The notes under the pieces: generated by a model
Told to the model about the DNA's origin: nothing
The model's input: only the letters and a program-made list of their open reading frames with translations
The model's database searches: none
In this document: piece after piece, positions 50,989-61,047 of the stretch
Layout: every line of letters begins with the position of its first letter
How positions within the stretch are numbered: the stretch's first letter is position 1
From: Flammeovirgaceae bacterium 311
GTDB taxonomy: Bacteria; Bacteroidota; Bacteroidia; Cytophagales; Cyclobacteriaceae
Length of the DNA stretch: 64,000 bases
Assembly (NCBI GenBank): GCA_000597885.1
Contig: CP004371.1
Span: 4,307,001-4,371,000, forward strand
Reading direction: 5' to 3'
Program-made: the position numbers and the translations under genes

Positions 50989-51864
50989 CTAATGTGCTTG
51001 CTCCTGGTAAAACTTATGGAGCAGTTTATTTACCCTGCCGGCCTGCTCCCATTGAATAAAATGGCCGCAGTTGTTAATCAGCTCAGGCTGTGCCTGGGGT
51101 ATGAGGGTGGAGGCTGCCTGTACCAGGCTTTCCAGAGAAAGCTGTGGGTGCAGCAGAGGGCTGGGGATATAGCGGTCCTGCAGGCCAAAAAGCAGCAGAA
51201 CCGGCATCTGCAATTCTGGGAGTAAGGTGGATACAGGCTCATTCAGCATGGCCGTTACGCAGCCGGAAAGGGTTTGGCAAAAGCGGGGGTAATCACTGCA
51301 GTGGGTGTAGTAGAGGCGGTCTTCCAGTAATGCCTGTGCATCGTCGAGGAAATGGTGAAAGTTGGCCTTTACATTTTGGGCTACTACAGCGCGAGGTGCC
51401 TTTATCAGCTTTTCTACTGAAAACCATTCTTCCAGCTGCCTGGCTTCCGAAGTGCTGAAGGTTTCAAGGCCGGCAGGGGCAAGTAAAGCCAGTTTTTTAA
51501 CACGACGAGGATACCGTAGGGCGGTGTGAATTGCTACCTGCCCACCCATGGAATGGCCAGTCAGAAAGCATTCGTTCAGTGCCAGGCTATCCAGAAATTC
51601 CGCCACCACATCTGCATAAAAGCCCATACCGGGACTAAAACCTTCTTTGGAAGATTTGCCATAGCCTGGCAGGTCGAGGGCCAGGCAGCGGTAGTGACGG
51701 CTTAAGAAGGGGAGGTTTTTACTCCAGGCTGTTAAATTACTACCTAGGCCATGCAAAAACAGCAGGGGGAGTCCCTGCCCAACTTCTGTATAGGCCAGGC
51801 GGAGACCACCTGCTGTATTTACCCATGAGGTAGGAAAGGCATAGGAAATATTTTCGATCAGCAT
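50989..51864 (-). CDS. Cytoplasmic alpha/beta hydrolase of the uptake/CoA-ligase operon
   Basis: A 291-residue alpha/beta hydrolase. Nucleophile elbow GHSMGG with Ser105, acid Asp230 (FGLQDRYIP), base His268 (NNCGHF), oxyanion region FLHGLGSN. There is no signal peptide. It is paralogous to the exported hydrolase at 57693-58634 (both have LPGYGxS, GHSMGGQ, AP.G.ETF.T.EA). It is last in the operon, 2 bases after the CoA ligase. It likely acts as an esterase or thioesterase on the pathway intermediate; this is inference. Confidence 0.87.
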   Translation of the reverse strand: MLIENISYAFPTSWVNTAGGLRLAYTEVGQGLPLLFLHGLGSNLTAWSKNLPFLSRHYRCLALDLPGYGKSSKEGFSPGMGFYADVVAEFLDSLALNECFLTGHSMGGQVAIHTALRYPRRVKKLALLAPAGLETFSTSEARQLEEWFSVEKLIKAPRAVVAQNVKANFHHFLDDAQALLEDRLYYTHCSDYPRFCQTLSGCVTAMLNEPVSTLLPELQMPVLLLFGLQDRYIPSPLLHPQLSLESLVQAASTLIPQAQPELINNCGHFIQWEQAGRVNKLLHKFYQEQAH

Positions 51865-51866
51865 TT

Positions 51867-53354
51867 TTACTTCAGCAGACTGCGGGCAATTTTGCCGGTA
51901 TCGGTTTTAGGCAGCTCGCCTACAAAATGGATGTACTTGGGTATTTTATACTTGGCCAGTCCCTGGCGGCAAAACTCCAGTATTTCCTGCTCACTAAGCA
52001 TAGCGCCCTCCTTCAGTGCTACAAATGCCTTGCCTGTCTCGCCCCAGCGGTCATCGGGGGTGCCTACAATAGCTACTTCTTCAATGGCTGAATGAGTCTG
52101 CAGGTACTTCTCTACCTCGGCCGGATAAACGTTTTCTCCTCCGCTGATGAACATATTTTTCTTACGGTCAACCACGTACAGAAAACCTTCCTCATCCTGC
52201 AGTACCATATCACCGGTCTTAAACCAATCGCCCTCCTTTGCTGCAGCGCTTGCTTCCTCATGTTGCCAGTAGCCCGGTGTAACCATGGGGCCCCGCAGCC
52301 ATAATTCACCAGCTTCACCTGCTGCTACAGGATTGCCTTCGTCGTCCATCAGCTGATAGTCCACATAAAAGTTAGGTTTGCCAATGGATCCTCTTTTCCG
52401 GGCAGCATCCTGATGGTTAAGGGAAGTTATATTGGGGCCAACTTCTGTGAGGCCATAGCCCTGACGGATCAGGATTCCCTTTTGGTGCCATCGTTCTATA
52501 GTAGGTAGCGGCAGGGCCTCTCCACCCACAATAAAGTAGCGAATGTGCGCCAGTGCCACCTGCTCAAAGGCCTCAGCCTCCTGCATCATCTTCAGCATGG
52601 TAGGCACGGCCATGTAGAGTGTAGCATTTTCCTGCTCCAGCACCCGCAGCACCTCCTCTGCCTCAAACTTTGCCATCAGGGTAAAAGAAGCACCATGGTG
52701 CAGAAACGGCGTGAGGAAAACATTCCAGCCGCCGGTGTGGAAAGGCGGCATGCTGATGAGCGTATGGTCACGGGAGGTAATATCCAGCCTGGTGGCAGTA
52801 TTGATGCTGTTCCAGAAGGCCATTCCATGGGTATAAAGAGCACCTTTGGGAAAGCCGGTAGTGCCTGAGGTATAGAGAATAAATAGGGGATGATCTTCCT
52901 CCAGTTCAACAGGAGTAGACTCCCGTGGCAGGTGTCCGCTTACTGCTTCGCTAAAAGTGGCCGGCGTCATGATATGGCGGATCCGTTCCAGAATATGGTG
53001 CCCTTCCAGCAGTGCATTGTAGTGGTCATCTGCCAGAAAAAGCTCAGGCTGGCAATTATCCAGCATATAGGCCAGCTCGCGGCCGGTAAGGCGGTAGTTT
53101 AGGGGCACCAGGATTATGCCCAGTTTTTGCGCTGCTGCAAAGAGCAGGATGTGCTCCAGGCAAAAATCAGCCAGAATGGCTACCCGGCTGCCCTTCTTCA
53201 GGGATAGCTCATGTTGTAGAAAGGAGGCTGCTTTTAATCCTCTTTCCTGAAGCTGGCCATAGGTTAAGCTTCGCTGGCTGCTGTGTTCCCGTACAGCTAG
53301 TTTATCGGGCTGATAAGTAGCCCATCGCTCAATCCAGTCTTTACGATACTGCAT
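51867..53354 (-). CDS. AMP-forming acyl-CoA ligase
   Basis: A 495-residue ANL-superfamily enzyme: P-loop FILYTSGTTGFPKGALYTH, adenine motif RQGYGLTEVGPN, hinge DRKKNMFISGGENVYPAEVE, and catalytic lysine in PKTDTGKIARSLLK. It activates a carboxylic acid with ATP and CoA. Closest in style to medium/long-chain or o-succinylbenzoate-type ligases; the acyl substrate is not readable. It follows the KAS III-like gene by 15 bases and precedes the hydrolase by 2, so it is in the same transcript. Confidence 0.9.
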   Translation of the reverse strand: MQYRKDWIERWATYQPDKLAVREHSSQRSLTYGQLQERGLKAASFLQHELSLKKGSRVAILADFCLEHILLFAAAQKLGIILVPLNYRLTGRELAYMLDNCQPELFLADDHYNALLEGHHILERIRHIMTPATFSEAVSGHLPRESTPVELEEDHPLFILYTSGTTGFPKGALYTHGMAFWNSINTATRLDITSRDHTLISMPPFHTGGWNVFLTPFLHHGASFTLMAKFEAEEVLRVLEQENATLYMAVPTMLKMMQEAEAFEQVALAHIRYFIVGGEALPLPTIERWHQKGILIRQGYGLTEVGPNITSLNHQDAARKRGSIGKPNFYVDYQLMDDEGNPVAAGEAGELWLRGPMVTPGYWQHEEASAAAKEGDWFKTGDMVLQDEEGFLYVVDRKKNMFISGGENVYPAEVEKYLQTHSAIEEVAIVGTPDDRWGETGKAFVALKEGAMLSEQEILEFCRQGLAKYKIPKYIHFVGELPKTDTGKIARSLLK

Positions 53355-53369
53355 ACAGGCGCTGTTAAA

Positions 53370-54359
<990 letters not shown>

Positions 54360-54414
54360 AAGATTTTAATAAATGGGGTAGTAGGGGTATCCCCCTGCCG
54401 CATACCAATCCACA

Positions 54415-55158
54415 TTAACCAACCATTCCTCCATCCACACTAAGCACGGCGCCGTTTATGTAGCGGGCTTCTTCTGAGGCCAGAAATACATAGGCACTGG
54501 CGATATCATCGGGTGTGCCCATTTTCCCGCTAGGAATTTTAGCTTCTATCTGTTTCAATACTTCTTCAGGAATAAGCCCCGTCATTTCTGTAGCAATAAA
54601 GCCAGGGGCTACGGCATTGGCGGTTATGCCTTTGCGGCCCAGCTCCCGGGCCCACACCTTGGTCATGCCAATAACGCCGGCCTTGGTAGCCACATAATTG
54701 GTCTGCCCAAAGTTGCCGTACAGCCCCACTACCGAAGAAGCACTAATGATGCGCCCCCAGCCGTTGCTGACCATATATTCGGAGATTACCTTGGTGCAGT
54801 TAAAAACACCTGTCAGGTTTACATCCAGCACCTGCTGCCATTGTTCCGGCGTCATTTTCTTCAGCGAGGCATCGCGGGTAATACCGGCATTGTTAATGAG
54901 GATATCGATGCGGCCAAAGCGCTCTATGATCTGCCTGGCAGCCTGTTCTACCTCATTAAACTGTGCAGTATTTACTTTCATGAAATGAGCCCTGCCTCCT
55001 GCAGCTTCAATGCTGTTGGCGGTTTCGAGTCCCTTTTCTTCTGCCAGGTCCCAGATGATAACACTGGCACCTTCCCGGGCAAAGCGCTGGGCTGTTACTT
55101 TCCCTATTCCGTTGGCTCCCCCGGTTATCAGGGCAGTTTTATTTTCAAGTCGTTTCAT
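54415..55158 (-). CDS. FabG-like short-chain dehydrogenase, NAD-type
   Basis: A 247-residue classical SDR: TGGANGIGK (12-20), NNAG, catalytic Ser142, Tyr155 and Lys159 (NYVATKAG), and NAVAPGFIATEMT. Asp37 at the end of beta 2 (VIIWD) favours NAD(H) over NADP(H), which suits an oxidative 3-hydroxyacyl role rather than fatty-acid synthesis; this is inference. The longer frame to 55203 adds residues encoded by a heptanucleotide repeat and is rejected. It lies 55 bases before the KAS III-like gene. Confidence 0.9.
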   Translation of the reverse strand: MKRLENKTALITGGANGIGKVTAQRFAREGASVIIWDLAEEKGLETANSIEAAGGRAHFMKVNTAQFNEVEQAARQIIERFGRIDILINNAGITRDASLKKMTPEQWQQVLDVNLTGVFNCTKVISEYMVSNGWGRIISASSVVGLYGNFGQTNYVATKAGVIGMTKVWARELGRKGITANAVAPGFIATEMTGLIPEEVLKQIEAKIPSGKMGTPDDIASAYVFLASEEARYINGAVLSVDGGMVG

Positions 55159-55164
55159 GAATGA

Positions 55165-55199
55165 GGTATCGGGTATGGGGTATGAGGTATGAGGTTTCA
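55165..55199. repeat. Heptanucleotide repeat array upstream of SDR gene
   Basis: Five in-phase 7-base units with plus-strand consensus GGTATGA (minus strand TCATACC) end 6 bases from the SDR start codon at 55158. On the coding strand the unit and its position match the array before the comB-like gene at 40461. Confidence 0.65.
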
Positions 55200-55245
55200 G
55201 CACAGCGGGTGCATAAGAATTGTGCTCCCGCTGTGCCTGGCCTAT

Positions 55246-57681
55246 TTATTTTCTTCTGATGGCGGGCAGGTCTACGCGCAGTTCCATGGAGAAGAGGCGC
55301 CCGGTTGGAGGGGCTGCGGTAAACTCACGCTGTTCGGTATTAAAGAGGTTGGTTACCTGGGCAGAGAGGCGGAACATAGGGCTGAACTTGTAGCCGGCAC
55401 TTAGATCGAAGGTAACAAAACCACCCAGCGGACCATAGTTCCAGGCATTGCCACTAAGGGCATCTTCTACAATGGGCATACCACCGTATGTTGCACCTGG
55501 AATGGTCTCTGAAGCAATCTGGTAGCTGGAGTAGTAGTTGTAGCTTTCTACCCAGCGGCTAAAGAGGGAGCCAAACACCCGGGTGCCTGCATAATTAAGA
55601 CCGGCAGCCGCTTTGTGGTTGGGCGCATTTACCAGCAGATCCAGCTCGGTTACCTTGCCATCTTTATTAAAGTCGTTCTCCAGGTTTTCTTCGTCGATGC
55701 TGTAGCCAAAGTAGGAGTAATTGGCAAACATGCTAAGGGCTTCGGTAAGGGCATAATTCAGGCCAAGATCGAAACCATAGGTGTTAAACTTGCCAAAGTT
55801 GATGTACGAAATCACGAGGCCGTTGTAGGCGGCATAGCCAGACTGTACTTCCGACATAGGCTGATCTCCACGATGGGTGGCAACTCCTAGGGTAGTGGCA
55901 GGGCTTAAGAAATTTTCAGAGATGTTGTAATAGGCATTTGCATCCAGGTAGAATTTTTTGCCTACCGGCTGGCCTTTGTAGCCAAGCTCTATGGTCTGCA
56001 TTTTTTCTACCTTCTGCTTTTCAATTTTTCTGCCATCAGCCATGGTGAAACCTTCTGCATTGCCCAGAATAAGGCCGCTAAAGAGGTCGCCATACATATT
56101 CAGGATGGTTGGTGCTGCAATACCCTGTCCGTAAGTAAGGCGCAGGCCGCCCCAGTCGCCGCTTTTTACCAGGCCAAATTTTGGCAGGAAGTTAAAACCA
56201 TAGATCTCATGCTGATCACCACGGAAGGCTGCAGTGGCTTTGAAGCCCTGGCCAAAATTGTAATCGAACTGGCCATATGCACCAATCTGGCTAACGGTTA
56301 TATAATCATTCTCATCTTTATCCAGCAGGTAGGTGCCCATGCTATTAGCCATATCGCGCTGCCACTGTGCACCAAAGGTGTAGTAAAATTTCTTGTTGAT
56401 GTGGTTGTTGTACTGCAGCTCGGCATTAAAGCGGCGGGATTTGTCCTGGAAAAGGGCGCCGGTACCAAAAGAGCGTCTCTGCAGTTCCGCCTCAGGCATT
56501 TCCGGGTTGGCAGCCTTTAGGGCATGATAGGCTTTTGTGCGGTCGTCAATGGAGTAAGTGCTGTCGGTGCTGCTCCAGGTGTGGTAGAACTGAGCAAACC
56601 AGTTGTTGTGTACCAGTTTAGCCTGCAGGTAGTAAATGTTCCAGTCGCGGATCTGGTTGCGGCCCACATTGGTAGGCGAGAGGTAGGTAGAATTAGAAGC
56701 TCCTGCCTGTACAATGATATCGGTACCGCTTACAGGCGTAAAGTAAAGGCCTGTTTCACCACGCAAAAATTTAATATCGTTGTTCAGCATATACTCCTCT
56801 ACACCAGTTTTGGGTACAGCACCTATGTACACACTATCTGCAAAATCAAATTCCTGGGCAGTGGTGTACTCACCAGTTACCTTGAAGGCAAACTTATCGC
56901 TAAGTACCTGGGCATGGCGTGCGCGGGCAGTAAACATGCTCTGGTTGCCGGCACCAACACTTACAATGGTTCCGGCGCTGCTGCGCGGATCTTTGGTGAT
57001 GGTATTTACCAGGCCGTTGTGCGCATTAGGACCAAATAGGGCAGCATTCGGACCTAATACAATCTCCATGCGCTCAATATCTTCCTTGATCACGGTATTG
57101 AGCGGGCCCATGGGCAGGCCGGTGGCGATGAGTGTAGAGAAACGGCCGTCGGTTACCTGCAGGTTTTTAGCGTTAAAGTTGCTGTTAAAACCCCGTACGT
57201 TGATACCGGTACCCACAACACCTGCCCGTACAAAATCTACCCCTTTTACGCGGGCCAGCAGCTCGCCAGGATTAAAGGTTGGAATGTTCTCCAGCTCCTG
57301 CTTGCCTATTACCTCAATGGTTGCAGGTGTTTCAGTGATTTTTTCGGCACGGCGGGTACCGGAGATCACCACCTCACCCATTTGCTCCAGGTCTTCAGAT
57401 AGCCGCAGGTCGAGGGTCTGGCGGTTGCCTACCTTTACTTCTTCCGATATAAAGCCTACAAAGCTGAATACCAGTACTGCCTCCGGACCCGGAACGGCGA
57501 TTTCGTAATACCCGTTGGTATTGGTAACCACACCGGTGCCAGTATCTTTAAGCTGGATGTTTACCCCGGGCAAACCTTCATTGTTCAGGGCGGAAGATAC
57601 CCTCCCTTTGATGATTCTTTCCTGTGCCAGCAGCAGCGTGCAGGAGAAGAGTAATAAACAGGTGAAGAAAAGGTGTTTCAT
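55246..57681 (-). CDS. TonB-dependent outer membrane receptor
   Basis: 811 residues: signal peptide 1-19 (TLLLAQ), CarboxypepD_reg domain (about 22-105; IKGRVSSALNNEGLPGVNI), then plug domain (RRAEKITETPATIEVIGKQE to about 225, with NVRGFNSNF and GPNAALFGPNA), and a 22-strand barrel ending FSMELRVDLPAIRR. It is a classical receptor without a SusD partner. The gene is flanked by a periplasmic hydrolase 11 bases upstream and the SDR 87 bases downstream, so it is the outer-membrane gate of this operon. The ligand is unknown; no siderophore genes are nearby. Confidence 0.93.
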   Translation of the reverse strand: MKHLFFTCLLLFSCTLLLAQERIIKGRVSSALNNEGLPGVNIQLKDTGTGVVTNTNGYYEIAVPGPEAVLVFSFVGFISEEVKVGNRQTLDLRLSEDLEQMGEVVISGTRRAEKITETPATIEVIGKQELENIPTFNPGELLARVKGVDFVRAGVVGTGINVRGFNSNFNAKNLQVTDGRFSTLIATGLPMGPLNTVIKEDIERMEIVLGPNAALFGPNAHNGLVNTITKDPRSSAGTIVSVGAGNQSMFTARARHAQVLSDKFAFKVTGEYTTAQEFDFADSVYIGAVPKTGVEEYMLNNDIKFLRGETGLYFTPVSGTDIIVQAGASNSTYLSPTNVGRNQIRDWNIYYLQAKLVHNNWFAQFYHTWSSTDSTYSIDDRTKAYHALKAANPEMPEAELQRRSFGTGALFQDKSRRFNAELQYNNHINKKFYYTFGAQWQRDMANSMGTYLLDKDENDYITVSQIGAYGQFDYNFGQGFKATAAFRGDQHEIYGFNFLPKFGLVKSGDWGGLRLTYGQGIAAPTILNMYGDLFSGLILGNAEGFTMADGRKIEKQKVEKMQTIELGYKGQPVGKKFYLDANAYYNISENFLSPATTLGVATHRGDQPMSEVQSGYAAYNGLVISYINFGKFNTYGFDLGLNYALTEALSMFANYSYFGYSIDEENLENDFNKDGKVTELDLLVNAPNHKAAAGLNYAGTRVFGSLFSRWVESYNYYSSYQIASETIPGATYGGMPIVEDALSGNAWNYGPLGGFVTFDLSAGYKFSPMFRLSAQVTNLFNTEQREFTAAPPTGRLFSMELRVDLPAIRRK

Positions 57682-57692
57682 AATAGATACGT

Positions 57693-58634
57693 TTAAGGGG
57701 TTGATTTTTTTGTAGTTGAGTTGAGTTTCAGAAACTGTAGCAGTGCCTTGTTGAAGGCTTCCGGTTGTTCGAACTGCAGCAGATGACCTGCTGCTGGCAG
57801 GAGCACCAGCTGACTATCCGGTATGACGGTTTGTGCCTGCTGTGCGATGGCCTCGGTGGTGAGCCCGGGGTGCAGGTAGCGGTTTGGGATCAGCTTGTCT
57901 TCTGCACCAAACACGATCAGGGCAGGCATTTTAATCTCCCCCAGCCTGCTGGCTACCGGCGCCTCCAGCATACCGCTCACACCTGCCTGCAACACCTGTG
58001 CGTAGGTTGGGTAGTAGTCGTATTCGTTGAGTGCCAGGCGGGCCCGGATGAGTGGTTCTGTTTCGGCAGGCATGGCAGAGAAATTCATGGCCCAGGACTG
58101 GCGAATCTGCTCTTCCGACTGCTTTTGTTGAAAACTGGCAGCGGCGTAAGCCTTTAAGCCGGTGGCTTCCTGTGTGGTAAAAGTTTCGATACCGGCAGGT
58201 GCTGCCAGTACAAGACTGCTTACACGCTGGGGCTGCTCCAGTGCCAGCAGCAACGCCAGCTGACCACCCATGGAATGACCCACGAGGTGTGCCTTCTGAA
58301 CGGACAGACTATCCATAAGGGCTACTACTGCCTTGCTGAAGAACAGCAGCAGGTTTTCTTCGGGCAGCTGTTGTAGCTGCGACTGACCATAACCAGGCAG
58401 GTCGAGGGCCAGTACCCTGTAGTGCTGGCTAAGGCCGGGCAGGTTGCGCATCCAGTGGTCGCGGGTGCCGCCCAGGCCGTGTAGCAGGATTAAAGTTTCT
58501 TTTCCCCTGCCGGCCTCTGTATAGCTAATGGCAATACTATCCAGCACCCGCAGCACCTTTTGCTGTTGCTGGGCCTGTAGTGAGAGCGACAGGCAGCTTA
58601 ATAGTATGCAGTAGAGGAATATCCTTGCTGTCAT
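57693..58634 (-). CDS. Exported alpha/beta hydrolase
   Basis: 313 residues; signal peptide 1-22 (SLSLQAQ) predicts the periplasm. Nucleophile elbow GHSMGG with Ser121, acid Asp246 (FGAEDKLIP), base His284 (AAGHLL), oxyanion LLHGLGG. It is a paralogue of the last gene in the operon, but exported. Its start overlaps the symporter stop by 4 bases (ATGA). It probably cleaves the imported substrate (ester or similar) between TonB receptor and symporter; this is inference from order and localisation. Confidence 0.88.
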   Translation of the reverse strand: MTARIFLYCILLSCLSLSLQAQQQQKVLRVLDSIAISYTEAGRGKETLILLHGLGGTRDHWMRNLPGLSQHYRVLALDLPGYGQSQLQQLPEENLLLFFSKAVVALMDSLSVQKAHLVGHSMGGQLALLLALEQPQRVSSLVLAAPAGIETFTTQEATGLKAYAAASFQQKQSEEQIRQSWAMNFSAMPAETEPLIRARLALNEYDYYPTYAQVLQAGVSGMLEAPVASRLGEIKMPALIVFGAEDKLIPNRYLHPGLTTEAIAQQAQTVIPDSQLVLLPAAGHLLQFEQPEAFNKALLQFLKLNSTTKKSTP

Positions 58635-60151
58635 GCTTTAACGGTTTTAAGTTTTTTAGAGGTGCGTGCACGCCATAAAATGTAGATGCTTCCGGAAAAG
58701 ATTACTGAGCTGCAAATGGCCAGCGCAGCGGCAACGCCGGGGTTGCGTACTGCTTCCTGCATGTATGGGGTCAGGCGTCCGTAATAAATGGCAAAATGTA
58801 CTGCCACAGCTACTACAGCGCCAGCTACCGGCACCATCAGAGGCACCCGCTTAAAGAAGATACCAAAAAGTACTGGTATAAAAGCGGCCGAGAAATAGGC
58901 ATATACACCGTTCTGAGCAAAAATGCCCACACTTAAATCGGGAGCGACCAGCTGCTGCCAGGAGAAAAAGAAGGAGATCAGCGCCAGCAGGAAGATCACT
59001 ATACGGTTTACGGCCACTTCGTTCTTTAGCTGCTTTCCCCTGCGGCCCATCAGGTTGCTGAAAATATCTGAGGTAATGGTGGTGGAGAGCGACTGGATAA
59101 GGCCCTCCAGGGTAGAAATACCTGCGGCGATAAGTCCCATCAGCACAACCAGGCCAATTACCCAGCTAAACTCCTGCAGCACATAGGCCGACATGACACC
59201 ATCTACAGCCAGGGGCTGTCCGTTTACCTGAAGGTCAGGGAAGGCCAGGCGGGCATATAAACCGGCAGCCACTACACAGAAAAAAAGAATCTCTACCACG
59301 ATGCCGGTGGCCAGGTAACGGTTTACGTCGGCATCTTTCTTCAGCAGCAGCGATTTGGTGATGATGTGCGGCTGGCATACAATGGCAATCCCTACCACAA
59401 TCTGGCAGAATACCACCTCAAACAAATCGCGGAACAGGGGACTTTGCGGGTTCAGGGGTTTGGCCAGCTGCGGGTCTATGGCAGCCAGTTTGCCTATAAA
59501 TCCCTCTATACCTTCCTTAAAATGCTCCAGTCCTGAGCCCAGCAGCAATACAGCCACTACAATCATCAGCAGGGCCTGGATCATATTGGTGTAGACCATG
59601 GAGTTAGCACCGCCGAACATCATATAGCCAAAAATAACGGTAATGATCACGGCCAGGGTAGGAAGCTCTGGTGTGTTGAGCATGGCTGCCAGTACTTTGG
59701 TAAGGCCCACGCAGATGAGTACAACAAAGGTGATGAGCAGCAGCGACAGAAATGCAAAGAAGAGCGCAAAGCTCTTGTTGTTGTAGCGGGCGCCGATCCA
59801 CTGCGCCATGGTCATGGCCTTGATAACGGTACCAACCTTTCTGAAGCCCTTGGTAAAAATAACCAGCGACACCAGCGCTCCCAGCGGAAGCATAAGCGCC
59901 ATGGCCAGAAAACCACTAAGGCCATAGTAAGCAACAAAACCAGGGTTGATGATAAAGGTAGCGGCAGAGGTCATGGATGCCGCCAGCGATAACCCGACAG
60001 CATAGGGAGAAAAACTGATGCTGCCCAGGGCATAATCGGCAATGCTTTTTGTGCTGGAGGCTCCCTTGATAACAAAGTAGAGCGTTACCAGCAAATAAAG
60101 CGCTATGATGGTCCATCCCGCTATGATCAACTCTTGTGATGCCAGGTTCAT
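58631..60151 (-). CDS. Sodium/solute symporter family protein
   Basis: A 506-residue inner-membrane protein with about 13 hydrophobic segments of the SSS (SLC5) family: the motif AVGLSLAASMTSAATFIINP near the N-terminus, GFRKVGTVIKAMTMAQWIGA, MVYTNMIQALLMIV and ISTLEGLIQSLSTTITSD. Members import acids, sugars or amino acids with Na+; panthothenate/acetate/proline-type subgroups are not distinguishable here. It is the first gene of the seven-gene operon, downstream of the LytTR regulator by 155 bases. Confidence 0.9.
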   Translation of the reverse strand: MNLASQELIIAGWTIIALYLLVTLYFVIKGASSTKSIADYALGSISFSPYAVGLSLAASMTSAATFIINPGFVAYYGLSGFLAMALMLPLGALVSLVIFTKGFRKVGTVIKAMTMAQWIGARYNNKSFALFFAFLSLLLITFVVLICVGLTKVLAAMLNTPELPTLAVIITVIFGYMMFGGANSMVYTNMIQALLMIVVAVLLLGSGLEHFKEGIEGFIGKLAAIDPQLAKPLNPQSPLFRDLFEVVFCQIVVGIAIVCQPHIITKSLLLKKDADVNRYLATGIVVEILFFCVVAAGLYARLAFPDLQVNGQPLAVDGVMSAYVLQEFSWVIGLVVLMGLIAAGISTLEGLIQSLSTTITSDIFSNLMGRRGKQLKNEVAVNRIVIFLLALISFFFSWQQLVAPDLSVGIFAQNGVYAYFSAAFIPVLFGIFFKRVPLMVPVAGAVVAVAVHFAIYYGRLTPYMQEAVRNPGVAAALAICSSVIFSGSIYILWRARTSKKLKTVKA

Positions 60152-60306: not shown

Positions 60307-61047
60307 TTACATCACATCGAAAAACTGCATAAGTTCATCGCGGTAGGTTTTGCCAATGGGAATCTTATGTCCCTGTATGATCAGATCGTTATATTCCAGT
60401 GCCTCTACCTTTTGGTGATTTACCAGGTATGAGCGGTGTACGCGCAAAAAGGTGCTTTCCGGAAATTTTTCGGCAATGGCTTTAAGGGTGTAGTTTACCA
60501 GGTATTTGTTGTCGGTGGTATAAACGTTGGAGTAGATGTCGTTAGCTTCTACAAACAGAATATCGCGCAGGGCCACTTTTACCAGCCGGTTTTTTGATTT
60601 GATAAAAATGGCATCGTCGAGTGTGTATTTTTTATCCCTGATCTCGGCATCTTCCGGCGTATGCTGCTTTTGCTGATGGCTTTTGTAGAGTGCCAGCTCT
60701 ATGGAAGAGCGGAGGGTGGTTTCATTAAAAGGCTTTGCCAGATAGGCCCAGGGTTCGGTAGGCAGGGCCTCGCTCATGGTGGCACCATCGGCATGTGCCG
60801 TGATGTAAATAAAGGGAATGTGCAGCTGCTCCTTGAGCTTTTTGCCTACTTCAATGCCATTCATCACACCGGCCAGGTCAATATCCAGAATTACCAGGTC
60901 AGGCTTTTCTTTCAGGATCTGTAACAGGCCTTCTTCGCCGGTTTCAGAGATGCCCACTACTTTGTAGTCCAGACTCTCCAGCTGAAAAGACAGGTTTTTG
61001 GCAACTACGTAGTCGTCTTCTACAAGGTAGATTCTGGCATTCTTCAT
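60307..61047 (-). CDS. LytTR-family response regulator
   Basis: 246 residues. Receiver domain 1-125 with Asp11/Asp12, phospho-acceptor Asp55 (VILDIDLAG), Thr83 and Lys105 (LAKPFN); LytTR DNA-binding domain about 145-246 (LRDILFVEANDIYSNVYTTD, FLRVHRSYLVN, PIGKTYRDEL). It sits between the symporter gene (same strand) and a divergent histidine kinase, the usual arrangement for a two-component pair. Probable local control of the downstream operon is inference. Confidence 0.92.
   Translation of the reverse strand: MKNARIYLVEDDYVVAKNLSFQLESLDYKVVGISETGEEGLLQILKEKPDLVILDIDLAGVMNGIEVGKKLKEQLHIPFIYITAHADGATMSEALPTEPWAYLAKPFNETTLRSSIELALYKSHQQKQHTPEDAEIRDKKYTLDDAIFIKSKNRLVKVALRDILFVEANDIYSNVYTTDNKYLVNYTLKAIAEKFPESTFLRVHRSYLVNHQKVEALEYNDLIIQGHKIPIGKTYRDELMQFFDVM

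What the first reader, a model, noticed from the sequence alone, without database searches (positions are those of the whole stretch)
50989..60151. Seven-gene import-and-activation operon for an unknown carboxylic acid or ester
Seen: symporter, exported alpha/beta hydrolase, TonB receptor, SDR, KAS III-like enzyme, AMP-forming CoA ligase and cytoplasmic alpha/beta hydrolase on one strand, with 4-base overlap, 11, 87, 55, 15 and 2-base spacings. The parts cover every compartment: outer-membrane gate, periplasmic cleavage, inner-membrane Na+ import, CoA activation, oxidation and chain handling. Known families give only generic activities; this combination does not match a textbook pathway I can name. 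Hydroxyacid oligoesters or acylated natural products are candidate substrates (inference).
Basis: partly seen in the sequence, partly recalled or inferred. Interest (0 to 1): 0.72.

Follow-up and report, generated by a model that had tools for sequence, protein, structure and literature searches.

The report
Hydroxy-acid ester uptake and breakdown operon
This stretch holds a gene set, kept together in many bacteria, that most likely takes up small hydroxy-acid esters such as fragments of the natural bioplastic PHB and breaks them down; one of its enzymes looks like a fatty-acid builder but has lost the parts needed for building.

Summary
The seven genes are real, at the stated coordinates and spacings, and not a chance row. 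The KAS III-like gene has close relatives in 56 of 395 sampled genomes of the phylum. Of 47 related loci with full flanks, 46 also hold the ligase, 40 a hydrolase, 39 the SDR (13 of them divergent) and 41 an SSS or MFS carrier. Each of the 47 has the TonB receptor or an alternative outer-membrane barrel (27 and 21; one has both). None of 23 FabH-type loci shows these partners. Best reading: uptake and catabolism of a short 3-hydroxyacid ester, most likely 3-hydroxybutyrate oligomers. Related loci carry PHA depolymerases (2 of 84), an acetoacetate-CoA ligase (1), a 3-hydroxybutyrate dehydrogenase (1), a class III PHA synthase (1) and, in 15 of 84, a thiolase just upstream of the SDR. The window's genome has no PHB depolymerase or 3-hydroxybutyrate dehydrogenase over the model cut-offs, so the substrate is inferred, not shown. 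The unexpected part: the KAS III-like enzyme keeps its Cys, but Thr and Tyr replace the catalytic His and Asn in 50 of 50 relatives aligned, so it is probably not a condensing enzyme. What it does is open.

The parts
58631..60151 (-). SSS-family sodium:solute symporter (506 aa): proposed inner-membrane import of the freed acid
   Evidence: PF00474 123.5 bits; nearest NCBIfam PanF 107 bits, under its cut-off; SSS in 37 and MFS in 4 of 47 long-flank loci
57693..58634 (-). exported alpha/beta hydrolase (313 aa): proposed ester cleavage in the periplasm
   Evidence: PF00561 115.4 bits; hydrophobic N-terminus; 45 of 60 hydrolase ORFs of this kind in the 84 loci pass a crude hydropathy rule for export
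55246..57681 (-). TonB-dependent receptor with carboxypeptidase-regulatory domain (811 aa): proposed outer-membrane uptake
   Evidence: PF00593, PF07715, PF13715; receptor in 27 and alternative barrel in 21 of 47 loci, both in one, neither in none
54415..55158 (-). classical FabG-like SDR (247 aa): proposed NAD-dependent 3-hydroxyacyl-CoA dehydrogenase
   Evidence: TIGR01830 301 bits, over cut-off 297.75 (scanned from the GTG start); Asp at the end of beta-2 in all 65 loci where the position was aligned, of 66 with a hit; best PDB sequence match 4nbu
53370..54359 (-). KAS III-like enzyme with Cys114-Thr256-Tyr286 instead of Cys-His-Asn (329 aa); exact reaction unknown
   Evidence: PF08545, PF08541; 50 of 50 relatives C/T/Y; 23 of 23 FabH-type controls H and N, two of them only after reading the right strand; AlphaFold2 pLDDT 94, FabH/BioZ fold
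51867..53354 (-). AMP-forming acyl-CoA ligase (495 aa): proposed CoA activation of the acid
   Evidence: PF00501, PF13193; present in 46 of 47 long-flank loci
50989..51864 (-). alpha/beta hydrolase without an export signal (291 aa), paralogue of the exported one
   Evidence: PF00561 105.2 bits; 40.7% identity to the exported hydrolase
60307..61047 (-). LytTR response regulator, probable regulator of the operon
   Evidence: PF04397, PF00072; homologues (44-82% identity, rounded) directly upstream of the SSS gene in L046, L042, L057 and L117, and one gene further out in L044
61070..63241 (+). 7TMR-DISM histidine kinase, divergent partner of the response regulator
   Evidence: PF07695, PF02518; homologue divergent from the regulator in L046, L042 and L057, and between SSS and regulator in L044

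Best explanation
A catabolic uptake locus for a short 3-hydroxyacid ester, most likely 3-hydroxybutyrate (3HB) oligomers or similar esters. The TonB receptor carries the ester across the outer membrane, the exported hydrolase frees the acid, and the symporter imports it. The second hydrolase cleaves any ester that enters uncut. The AMP-forming ligase makes the acyl-CoA, the NAD-type SDR oxidises the 3-hydroxyacyl-CoA to the 3-oxoacyl-CoA (acetoacetyl-CoA for 3HB), and a thiolase (in the locus in some relatives, elsewhere in the genome here) yields acetyl-CoA. The KAS III-like protein forms an acyl-Cys intermediate and transfers or cleaves the acyl group rather than condensing. A LytTR/7TM-kinase pair probably switches the operon on. 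Shown by sequence: gene content, families, linkage, altered active site. Inferred: substrate, direction, every enzymatic step.
For: Linkage over 84 loci, with replacement of parts (TonB receptor by barrel plus lipoprotein; SSS by MFS) that keeps outer-membrane entry, carrier, ligase, SDR and KAS-like. PHA depolymerase at the operon's end in two related loci (L042, 22-base gap; L044, 1-base gap), both over the NF050058 cut-off. Acetoacetate-CoA ligase beside L044 (TIGR01217 834.9 bits). A 3-hydroxybutyrate dehydrogenase about 2 kb from the KAS gene in G046 (TIGR01963 363 bits), a family over cut-off in only 5 of 395 genomes of the phylum. Thiolase on the same strand just upstream of the SDR in 15 of 84 loci, e.g. 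35 bases before it in L063. Class III PhaC upstream in L115 (TIGR01836 449.8 bits). The SDR has the Asp at the end of beta-2 that marks NAD use (recalled rule) wherever it could be read (65 loci). A Chloroflexota plasmid has SDR, KAS-like (Thr/Tyr too), CoA-transferase, thiolase, hydrolase and ABC importer together. Co-occurrence in genomes of KAS-like and PHA-depolymerase family: 14 observed, 6.1 expected of 395, p=0.0009.
Against: The window's own genome has no PHB depolymerase over cut-off, no 3HB dehydrogenase over cut-off and no acetoacetate-CoA ligase over cut-off. PHA depolymerase sits in only 2 of 84 loci and those two are sister lineages; the acetoacetate-CoA ligase in 1, the 3HB dehydrogenase in 1; PhaC was seen in 1 (only ORFs chosen by eye were scanned for it). 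Counted by genus the co-occurrence is not significant (11 against 7.8 expected, p=0.11). In the 14 genomes with both none of the listed depolymerase places is near the KAS gene. The hydrolases match a PHA depolymerase model only far below cut-off (76 and 86 of 300 bits). Simple 3HB catabolism would not need the KAS-like enzyme, so the true substrate may be something else.
Confidence: 0.5

Rival explanations
1. Same architecture (uptake, activation, oxidation), but for a different acid: an aromatic, branched or terpenoid ester whose breakdown needs the KAS-like enzyme for a dedicated carbon-carbon or ester cleavage.
For: The best ligase match in the PDB is named feruloyl-CoA synthetase; the best hydrolase matches are BphD/HsaD-type; the alternative barrel's weak fold hits include OprD-family porins such as OpdK with vanillate and a BenF-like porin; the KAS-like gene is the anchor of the locus though 3HB does not need it.
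Against: Among the 14 ORF clusters that recur in at least 4 of 84 loci (read by eye, only some annotated) none looked like a hydratase, dioxygenase or ring-cleavage enzyme. The extra genes with known families point to acetoacetyl-CoA and PHA. The nearest-structure hits are remote.
Confidence: 0.3
2. Scavenging of an exogenous acid as starter for fatty-acid synthesis: ligase makes acyl-CoA, KAS III elongates it with malonyl-ACP, the FabG-like SDR reduces it.
For: The gene annotations alone (KAS III plus FabG) read this way; the KAS passes the broad PRK09352 model and the SDR the FabG model TIGR01830.
Against: KAS His and Asn replaced by Thr and Tyr in 50 of 50 relatives; NAD-type Asp in the SDR wherever readable; thiolase and PHA genes are the added neighbours. 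Acyl carrier proteins were not tested for: ORFs under 90 aa were not called.
Confidence: 0.1
3. An OleABCD-like hydrocarbon or beta-lactone pathway, since the core (KAS III/thiolase-fold, alpha/beta hydrolase, AMP-ligase, SDR) matches the four Ole gene kinds (recalled).
For: The four enzyme classes coincide; the OleA structure 3row (recognised by recall) is among the weak hits (1.4e-21).
Against: The KAS-like is far closer to FabH (2ebd, 3.2e-64) than to 3row, which matches over residues 34-138 only; the SDR is a short classical FabG type; the hydrolase looks exported in 45 of 60 ORFs and travels with an outer-membrane channel and carrier.
Confidence: 0.04

Closest known systems
PHB/3-hydroxybutyrate utilisation (extracellular depolymerase, oligomer hydrolase, 3HB dehydrogenase, acetoacetate activation, thiolase; recalled from Cupriavidus and relatives)
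   Same: Ester cleavage outside, uptake, route to acetoacetyl-CoA and thiolase; some relatives of this locus carry the depolymerase, 3HB dehydrogenase or acetoacetate-CoA ligase
   Different: Activation before oxidation (ligase then SDR), TonB or barrel entry, and a KAS III-like enzyme; the window genome lacks depolymerase and 3HB dehydrogenase over cut-off
KAS III-like acyltransferases CerJ and ChlB3 (PMC9573744, passages seen)
   Same: KAS III fold that has given up or altered the condensing triad and moves acyl groups from a Cys
   Different: ChlB3 is described with Cys113-His296-Asp301, as in CerJ; here the two other positions are Thr and Tyr, and the context is uptake and breakdown, not antibiotic synthesis
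FabH / KAS III family (E. coli FabH, Agrobacterium BioZ)
   Same: Fold (TM-score 0.84-0.94 for the top hits), Cys nucleophile, overall sequence
   Different: Catalytic His and Asn replaced by Thr and Tyr; Asp83 and Lys147 in 50 of 50 here, but 0 and 1 of 23 FabH-type rows (two rows mistranslated); catabolic neighbourhood
Bacteroidetes polysaccharide utilisation loci (SusC/SusD type)
   Same: Clustered outer-membrane receptor, exported hydrolase, carrier and regulator
   Different: Receptor far below the SusC cut-off (114.8 against 368 bits), no SusD among the seven genes, esterases instead of glycosidases, CoA chemistry inside
OleABCD olefin/beta-lactone enzymes
   Same: Same four enzyme classes (recalled)
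   Different: Different subfamilies and transport context

Membership tests
FabH / KAS III condensing enzyme | Catalytic Cys-His-Asn | tested here: not met
   Cys114 kept, Thr256 and Tyr286 in 50 of 50 relatives; His and Asn in 23 of 23 FabH-type controls (21, two on the right strand)
FabH / KAS III condensing enzyme | KAS III fold and sequence models | tested here: met
   PF08545/PF08541 over cut-off, PRK09352 258.8 over 249, AlphaFold2/Foldseek; but TIGR00747 fabH 226.8 under 292.1
PHB/3HB utilisation system | PHA depolymerase encoded | tested here: not met
   Own genome: one PF10503 hit, 20.8 bits, under cut-off 23; none for NF050058 at 1e-30. Other depolymerase families were not searched. 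Met in relatives L042, L044
PHB/3HB utilisation system | 3-hydroxybutyrate dehydrogenase encoded | tested here: not met
   Best own match 194.9 of 307 bits, which is the operon's own SDR; met beside the locus in G046
PHB/3HB utilisation system | Thiolase available | tested here: met
   Three thiolases over cut-off elsewhere in the genome; just upstream of the SDR in 15 of 84 related loci
PHB/3HB utilisation system | Growth on, or enzyme activity with, 3HB or its oligomers | not testable with these tools
   Needs bench work
SusC/SusD polysaccharide utilisation locus | SusC-type receptor with SusD partner | tested here: not met
   TIGR04056 114.8 of 368 bits; no SusD family among the seven genes
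OleABCD | OleA-type KAS and extended-SDR OleD (recalled) | tested here: not met
   KAS closest to FabH, 3row only partial; SDR is 247-aa FabG type
KAS III-like acyltransferase (CerJ, ChlB3) | Cys-His-Asp in place of Cys-His-Asn | tested here: not met
   The aligned His and Asn positions hold Thr and Tyr; triad as given in passages of PMC9573744. The works-like claim is not affected

The most novel reading that the evidence does not exclude
The Cys-Thr-Tyr KAS-like proteins are a new enzyme class: a thiolase-fold acyltransferase that cleaves 3-acyloxyacyl-CoA (an activated hydroxyacid oligomer) with CoA. The altered residues would serve alkoxide rather than enolate as the leaving group, so one ATP could activate a whole oligomer. 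The locus would then be a dedicated polyester-oligomer utilisation system shared by Bacteroidota, Ignavibacteria, Chlorobi and relatives.
Probability: 0.15. Interest if true: 0.82.

Novelty: new variant of a known kind. Interest (0 to 1): 0.56.

Why it matters
If right, it names a widespread route by which Bacteroidota and allied phyla take up hydroxyacid esters, possibly fragments of PHA bioplastic. In this phylum the textbook 3HB dehydrogenase was over cut-off in only 5 of 395 sampled genomes. It also singles out a KAS III subfamily that has lost the residues for fatty-acid condensation but is likely to be annotated as such; the one annotated relative seen with Thr/Tyr is called 'ketoacyl-ACP synthase III'. 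A small set of purified proteins would settle both questions.

Tried and rejected
Fatty-acid starter scavenging and OleABCD were considered and rejected (see rivals). The 'HBDH' labels in L112 and L115 proved false: 27% identity, and the L115 protein is far below the 3HB dehydrogenase cut-off; L112 stays mislabelled in the counts; only L043 counts. The first ORF-based counts hid genes under antisense ORFs and were replaced by tblastn counts. A thiolase count of 16 of 84 includes L089, whose thiolase lies apart on the other strand, so 15 is used. Two of 23 FabH control rows (L020, L031) were translated on the wrong strand; the right strand shows HQAN and GNT; they remained in the tree, where the Thr/Tyr group is one side of a branch with only moderate support (94/64). 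PhaC co-occurrence was tried with PF07167 (0 of 395 genomes); that model is recalled to cover class I/II enzymes, so class III was not surveyed. The promoter/terminator scan was uninformative. AlphaFold2 of the alternative barrel was weak (pLDDT 59), so its AlgE/OprD-type fold hits are only a hint. The best-ranked plasmid hit, a Streptomyces KAS III of 39.6% identity, has the normal HQAN and GNT motifs and a different neighbourhood; the Chloroflexota one of 38.9% has Thr/Tyr and a like neighbourhood, one record, no further plasmid relative. Nine literature searches listed no paper whose title or abstract start describes this locus or a Thr/Tyr KAS III; only asked about the KAS III triad, and the library lacks most subscription papers. 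From PMC5877338, PMC10304962 and PMC9573744 I saw passages only.
Full report
OBSERVATION. The gaps are -4, 11, 87, 55, 15 and 2 bases. The window lies at 4307001-4371000 of a single 6.67 Mb contig. The nearest named relative of the locus is Cesiribacter andamanensis (85% for the KAS-like protein). Beyond the last hydrolase it has the same thioredoxin-like and phosphopantetheinyl-transferase-like genes. The two hydrolases are paralogues, one with and one without a hydrophobic N-terminus.

LINKAGE. In 194 genomes of the order (the window's own included) the KAS-like protein has a sharply separate orthologue group: own 744 bits, six others 445-531 bits, next best 166 bits. None of the 15 other genomes of the same family has it, so the distribution is patchy. 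In 395 genomes of the phylum 56 have it at E<=1e-110. A scan of named genomes gave 452 stretches encoding a relative at E<=1e-3, of which the best 80 were kept. I analysed these 80 plus four unnamed loci (L040, L042, L043, L044). L039 and L041 were left out because L050 and L051 are contigs of the same lengths with matching contents. The loci were chosen by similarity of the KAS protein only, not by neighbourhood; they are related to each other (L040, L050 and L051 closely), so the counts are not independent events. By tblastn, 47 of the 84 have at least 8 kb on both sides. Of these 47, 46 have the ligase and 40 a hydrolase on the KAS strand, 39 the SDR (26 on the same strand, 13 only on the other), 37 the SSS carrier and 4 an MFS carrier. 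In 23 FabH-type control loci of about 4 kb none of the query families but KAS itself appears at E<=1e-12. Within 1.5 kb of the 84 KAS-like genes, the SDR appears in 48, the ligase in 47, the SSS in 40 and the TonB receptor in 28.

REPLACEABLE PARTS. Outer-membrane entry is filled in each of the 47: 27 have the TonB receptor and 21 a roughly 525-residue barrel, found with a lipoprotein. L117, with both, is counted in each; none has neither. The two barrels scanned have no Pfam or NCBIfam match of note. Of the lipoprotein, only a variable N-terminal part in L103 matches a carboxypeptidase-regulatory domain over cut-off. The barrel's low-confidence model resembles AlgE and OprD-type porins. Carriers swap between SSS and MFS. 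Fixed chemistry with exchangeable gates is what an uptake pathway should look like. A homologous LytTR regulator lies directly upstream of the SSS gene in L046, L042, L057 and L117; in L044 the kinase comes first and the regulator next. The 7TM kinase is seen in L046, L042, L057 and L044; in L117 the fetched stretch ends before its place. L040 and L050 have the same operon order without this LytTR gene.

SUBSTRATE. Five kinds of neighbour in related loci point to 3-hydroxybutyrate or PHA. (a) L042 and L044 end the operon with an exported short-chain PHA depolymerase family protein, 249 and 238 bits against a cut-off of 150, 22 bases and 1 base from the next operon gene. (b) L044 has an acetoacetate-CoA ligase convergent to it (834.9 bits, cut-off 520.9). 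(c) In G046 a 3-hydroxybutyrate dehydrogenase (363 bits, cut-off 307) lies 2 kb from the KAS gene, on the other strand; that family is over cut-off in only 5 of 395 genomes. The other four of these five have no KAS-like orthologue. (d) A thiolase lies on the same strand just upstream of the SDR (in four loci with a GbsR-like gene between) in 15 of 84 loci, of Lentimicrobium, Bacteroidales, Ignavibacteria and others. (e) L115 (Kapaibacterium) has a class III PhaC (449.8 bits, cut-off 365.3) and a weak PhaE match (60.5 bits, cut-off 155) upstream of the GbsR-like regulator and SDR; this is vicinity, not the same operon. L042 and L044 are sister lineages, so (a) may be one event.

Genome-level co-occurrence of the KAS-like gene with the depolymerase family (E<=1e-30) is 14 observed, 6.1 expected, p=0.0009. 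With only over-cut-off depolymerases it is 7 of 17 against 2.4 expected, p=0.005. Counted by genus it is 11 against 7.8, p=0.11, so relatedness may explain much of it. Lewinella cohaerens, which carries the locus (L089), is the closest species (99.4%) of a minor OTU in a PHBH-film biofilm (PMC5877338, passages); this is an anecdote. PMC10304962 reports Saprospiraceae lower on PHBV than on PLA (passages), which does not help.

AGAINST. The window's genome has no PHB depolymerase over cut-off, no 3-hydroxybutyrate dehydrogenase over cut-off and no acetoacetate-CoA ligase over cut-off. It could use oligomers or other esters, not PHB polymer through those families. It has three thiolases elsewhere. 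The operon hydrolases match a PHA depolymerase model only far below cut-off.

ENZYMES. The SDR is FabG-like (TIGR01830 301 bits, cut-off 297.75). It has Asp at the end of beta-2 in all 65 loci where the position was aligned (of 66 loci with a hit of at least 55% identity). By a recalled rule this marks NAD(H), which fits oxidation. Its best sequence match in the PDB is 4nbu. 45 of 60 hydrolase ORFs of this kind in the 84 loci have a hydrophobic N-terminus by a crude rule, so ester cleavage mainly outside the cytoplasm is likely.

THE KAS-LIKE PROTEIN. Model confidence is high (pLDDT 94) and the fold is FabH/BioZ. Cys114 is kept, but Thr256 and Tyr286 stand in 50 of 50 aligned relatives where the FabH-type controls have His and Asn: 21 of 23 in the alignment, and the other two, which that script had read on the wrong strand, show HQAN and GNT on the right one. 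The Chloroflexota protein (38.9% identity) also has Thr and Tyr, whereas a Streptomyces KAS III of like identity has the normal motifs. Asp83 and Lys147 are invariant in the 50. A Ser (50 of 50) replaces the position that aligns with Phe in 11 of 23 FabH-type rows and, by recalled numbering, with the FabH pocket Phe; this suggests a roomier acyl pocket. In thiolase-fold enzymes the His/Asn pair steadies the enolate in Claisen chemistry (recalled). Its loss argues against condensation and against a normal thiolase, and leaves acyl transfer or ester thiolysis as the most economical guesses. There is precedent for a KAS III fold turned acyltransferase in CerJ and ChlB3, with a different triad (PMC9573744, passages). 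The Chloroflexota plasmid locus keeps SDR, KAS-like, CoA activation (a CoA-transferase), a thiolase with a ChsH2-like OB protein, hydrolase and an ABC importer, so the logic appears in another phylum, in one record.

CONCLUSION. I put about 0.85 on an uptake, activation and oxidation locus for a carboxylic ester, and 0.5 on the stated reading with 3-hydroxyacid esters such as 3HB oligomers. The KAS step is unresolved. Nine literature searches of an open-licence library listed no paper that by title or abstract start describes the locus.

Noticed in passing
L063 6363-7793; L043 3898-5334: A roughly 477-residue protein with no Pfam or NCBIfam match of note lies near the KAS gene in 18 of 47 long-flank loci (5 same strand, 13 opposite); no match to it in the window.
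   Followed up: partly
L117 5794-6558 and 6655-8223: An uncharacterised lipoprotein and a predicted multi-strand barrel replace the TonB receptor in other lineages; L117 has both systems in one gene row.
   Followed up: partly
L134 6179-14942 (CP069395.1): A Chloroflexota plasmid carries a variant of the locus with CoA-transferase, thiolase, ChsH2-like OB-fold protein and ABC importer.
   Followed up: partly
window 50989-51864 and 57693-58634: Exported and non-exported hydrolases are paralogues inside one operon (40.7% identity), a duplication with re-targeting.
   Followed up: partly
L103 8705-9193 and similar: A GbsR/MarR-like gene sits near the KAS gene in 25 of 84 loci, in the Ignavibacteria- and Chlorobi-type loci just upstream of the SDR; a likely alternative regulator.
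   Followed up: no
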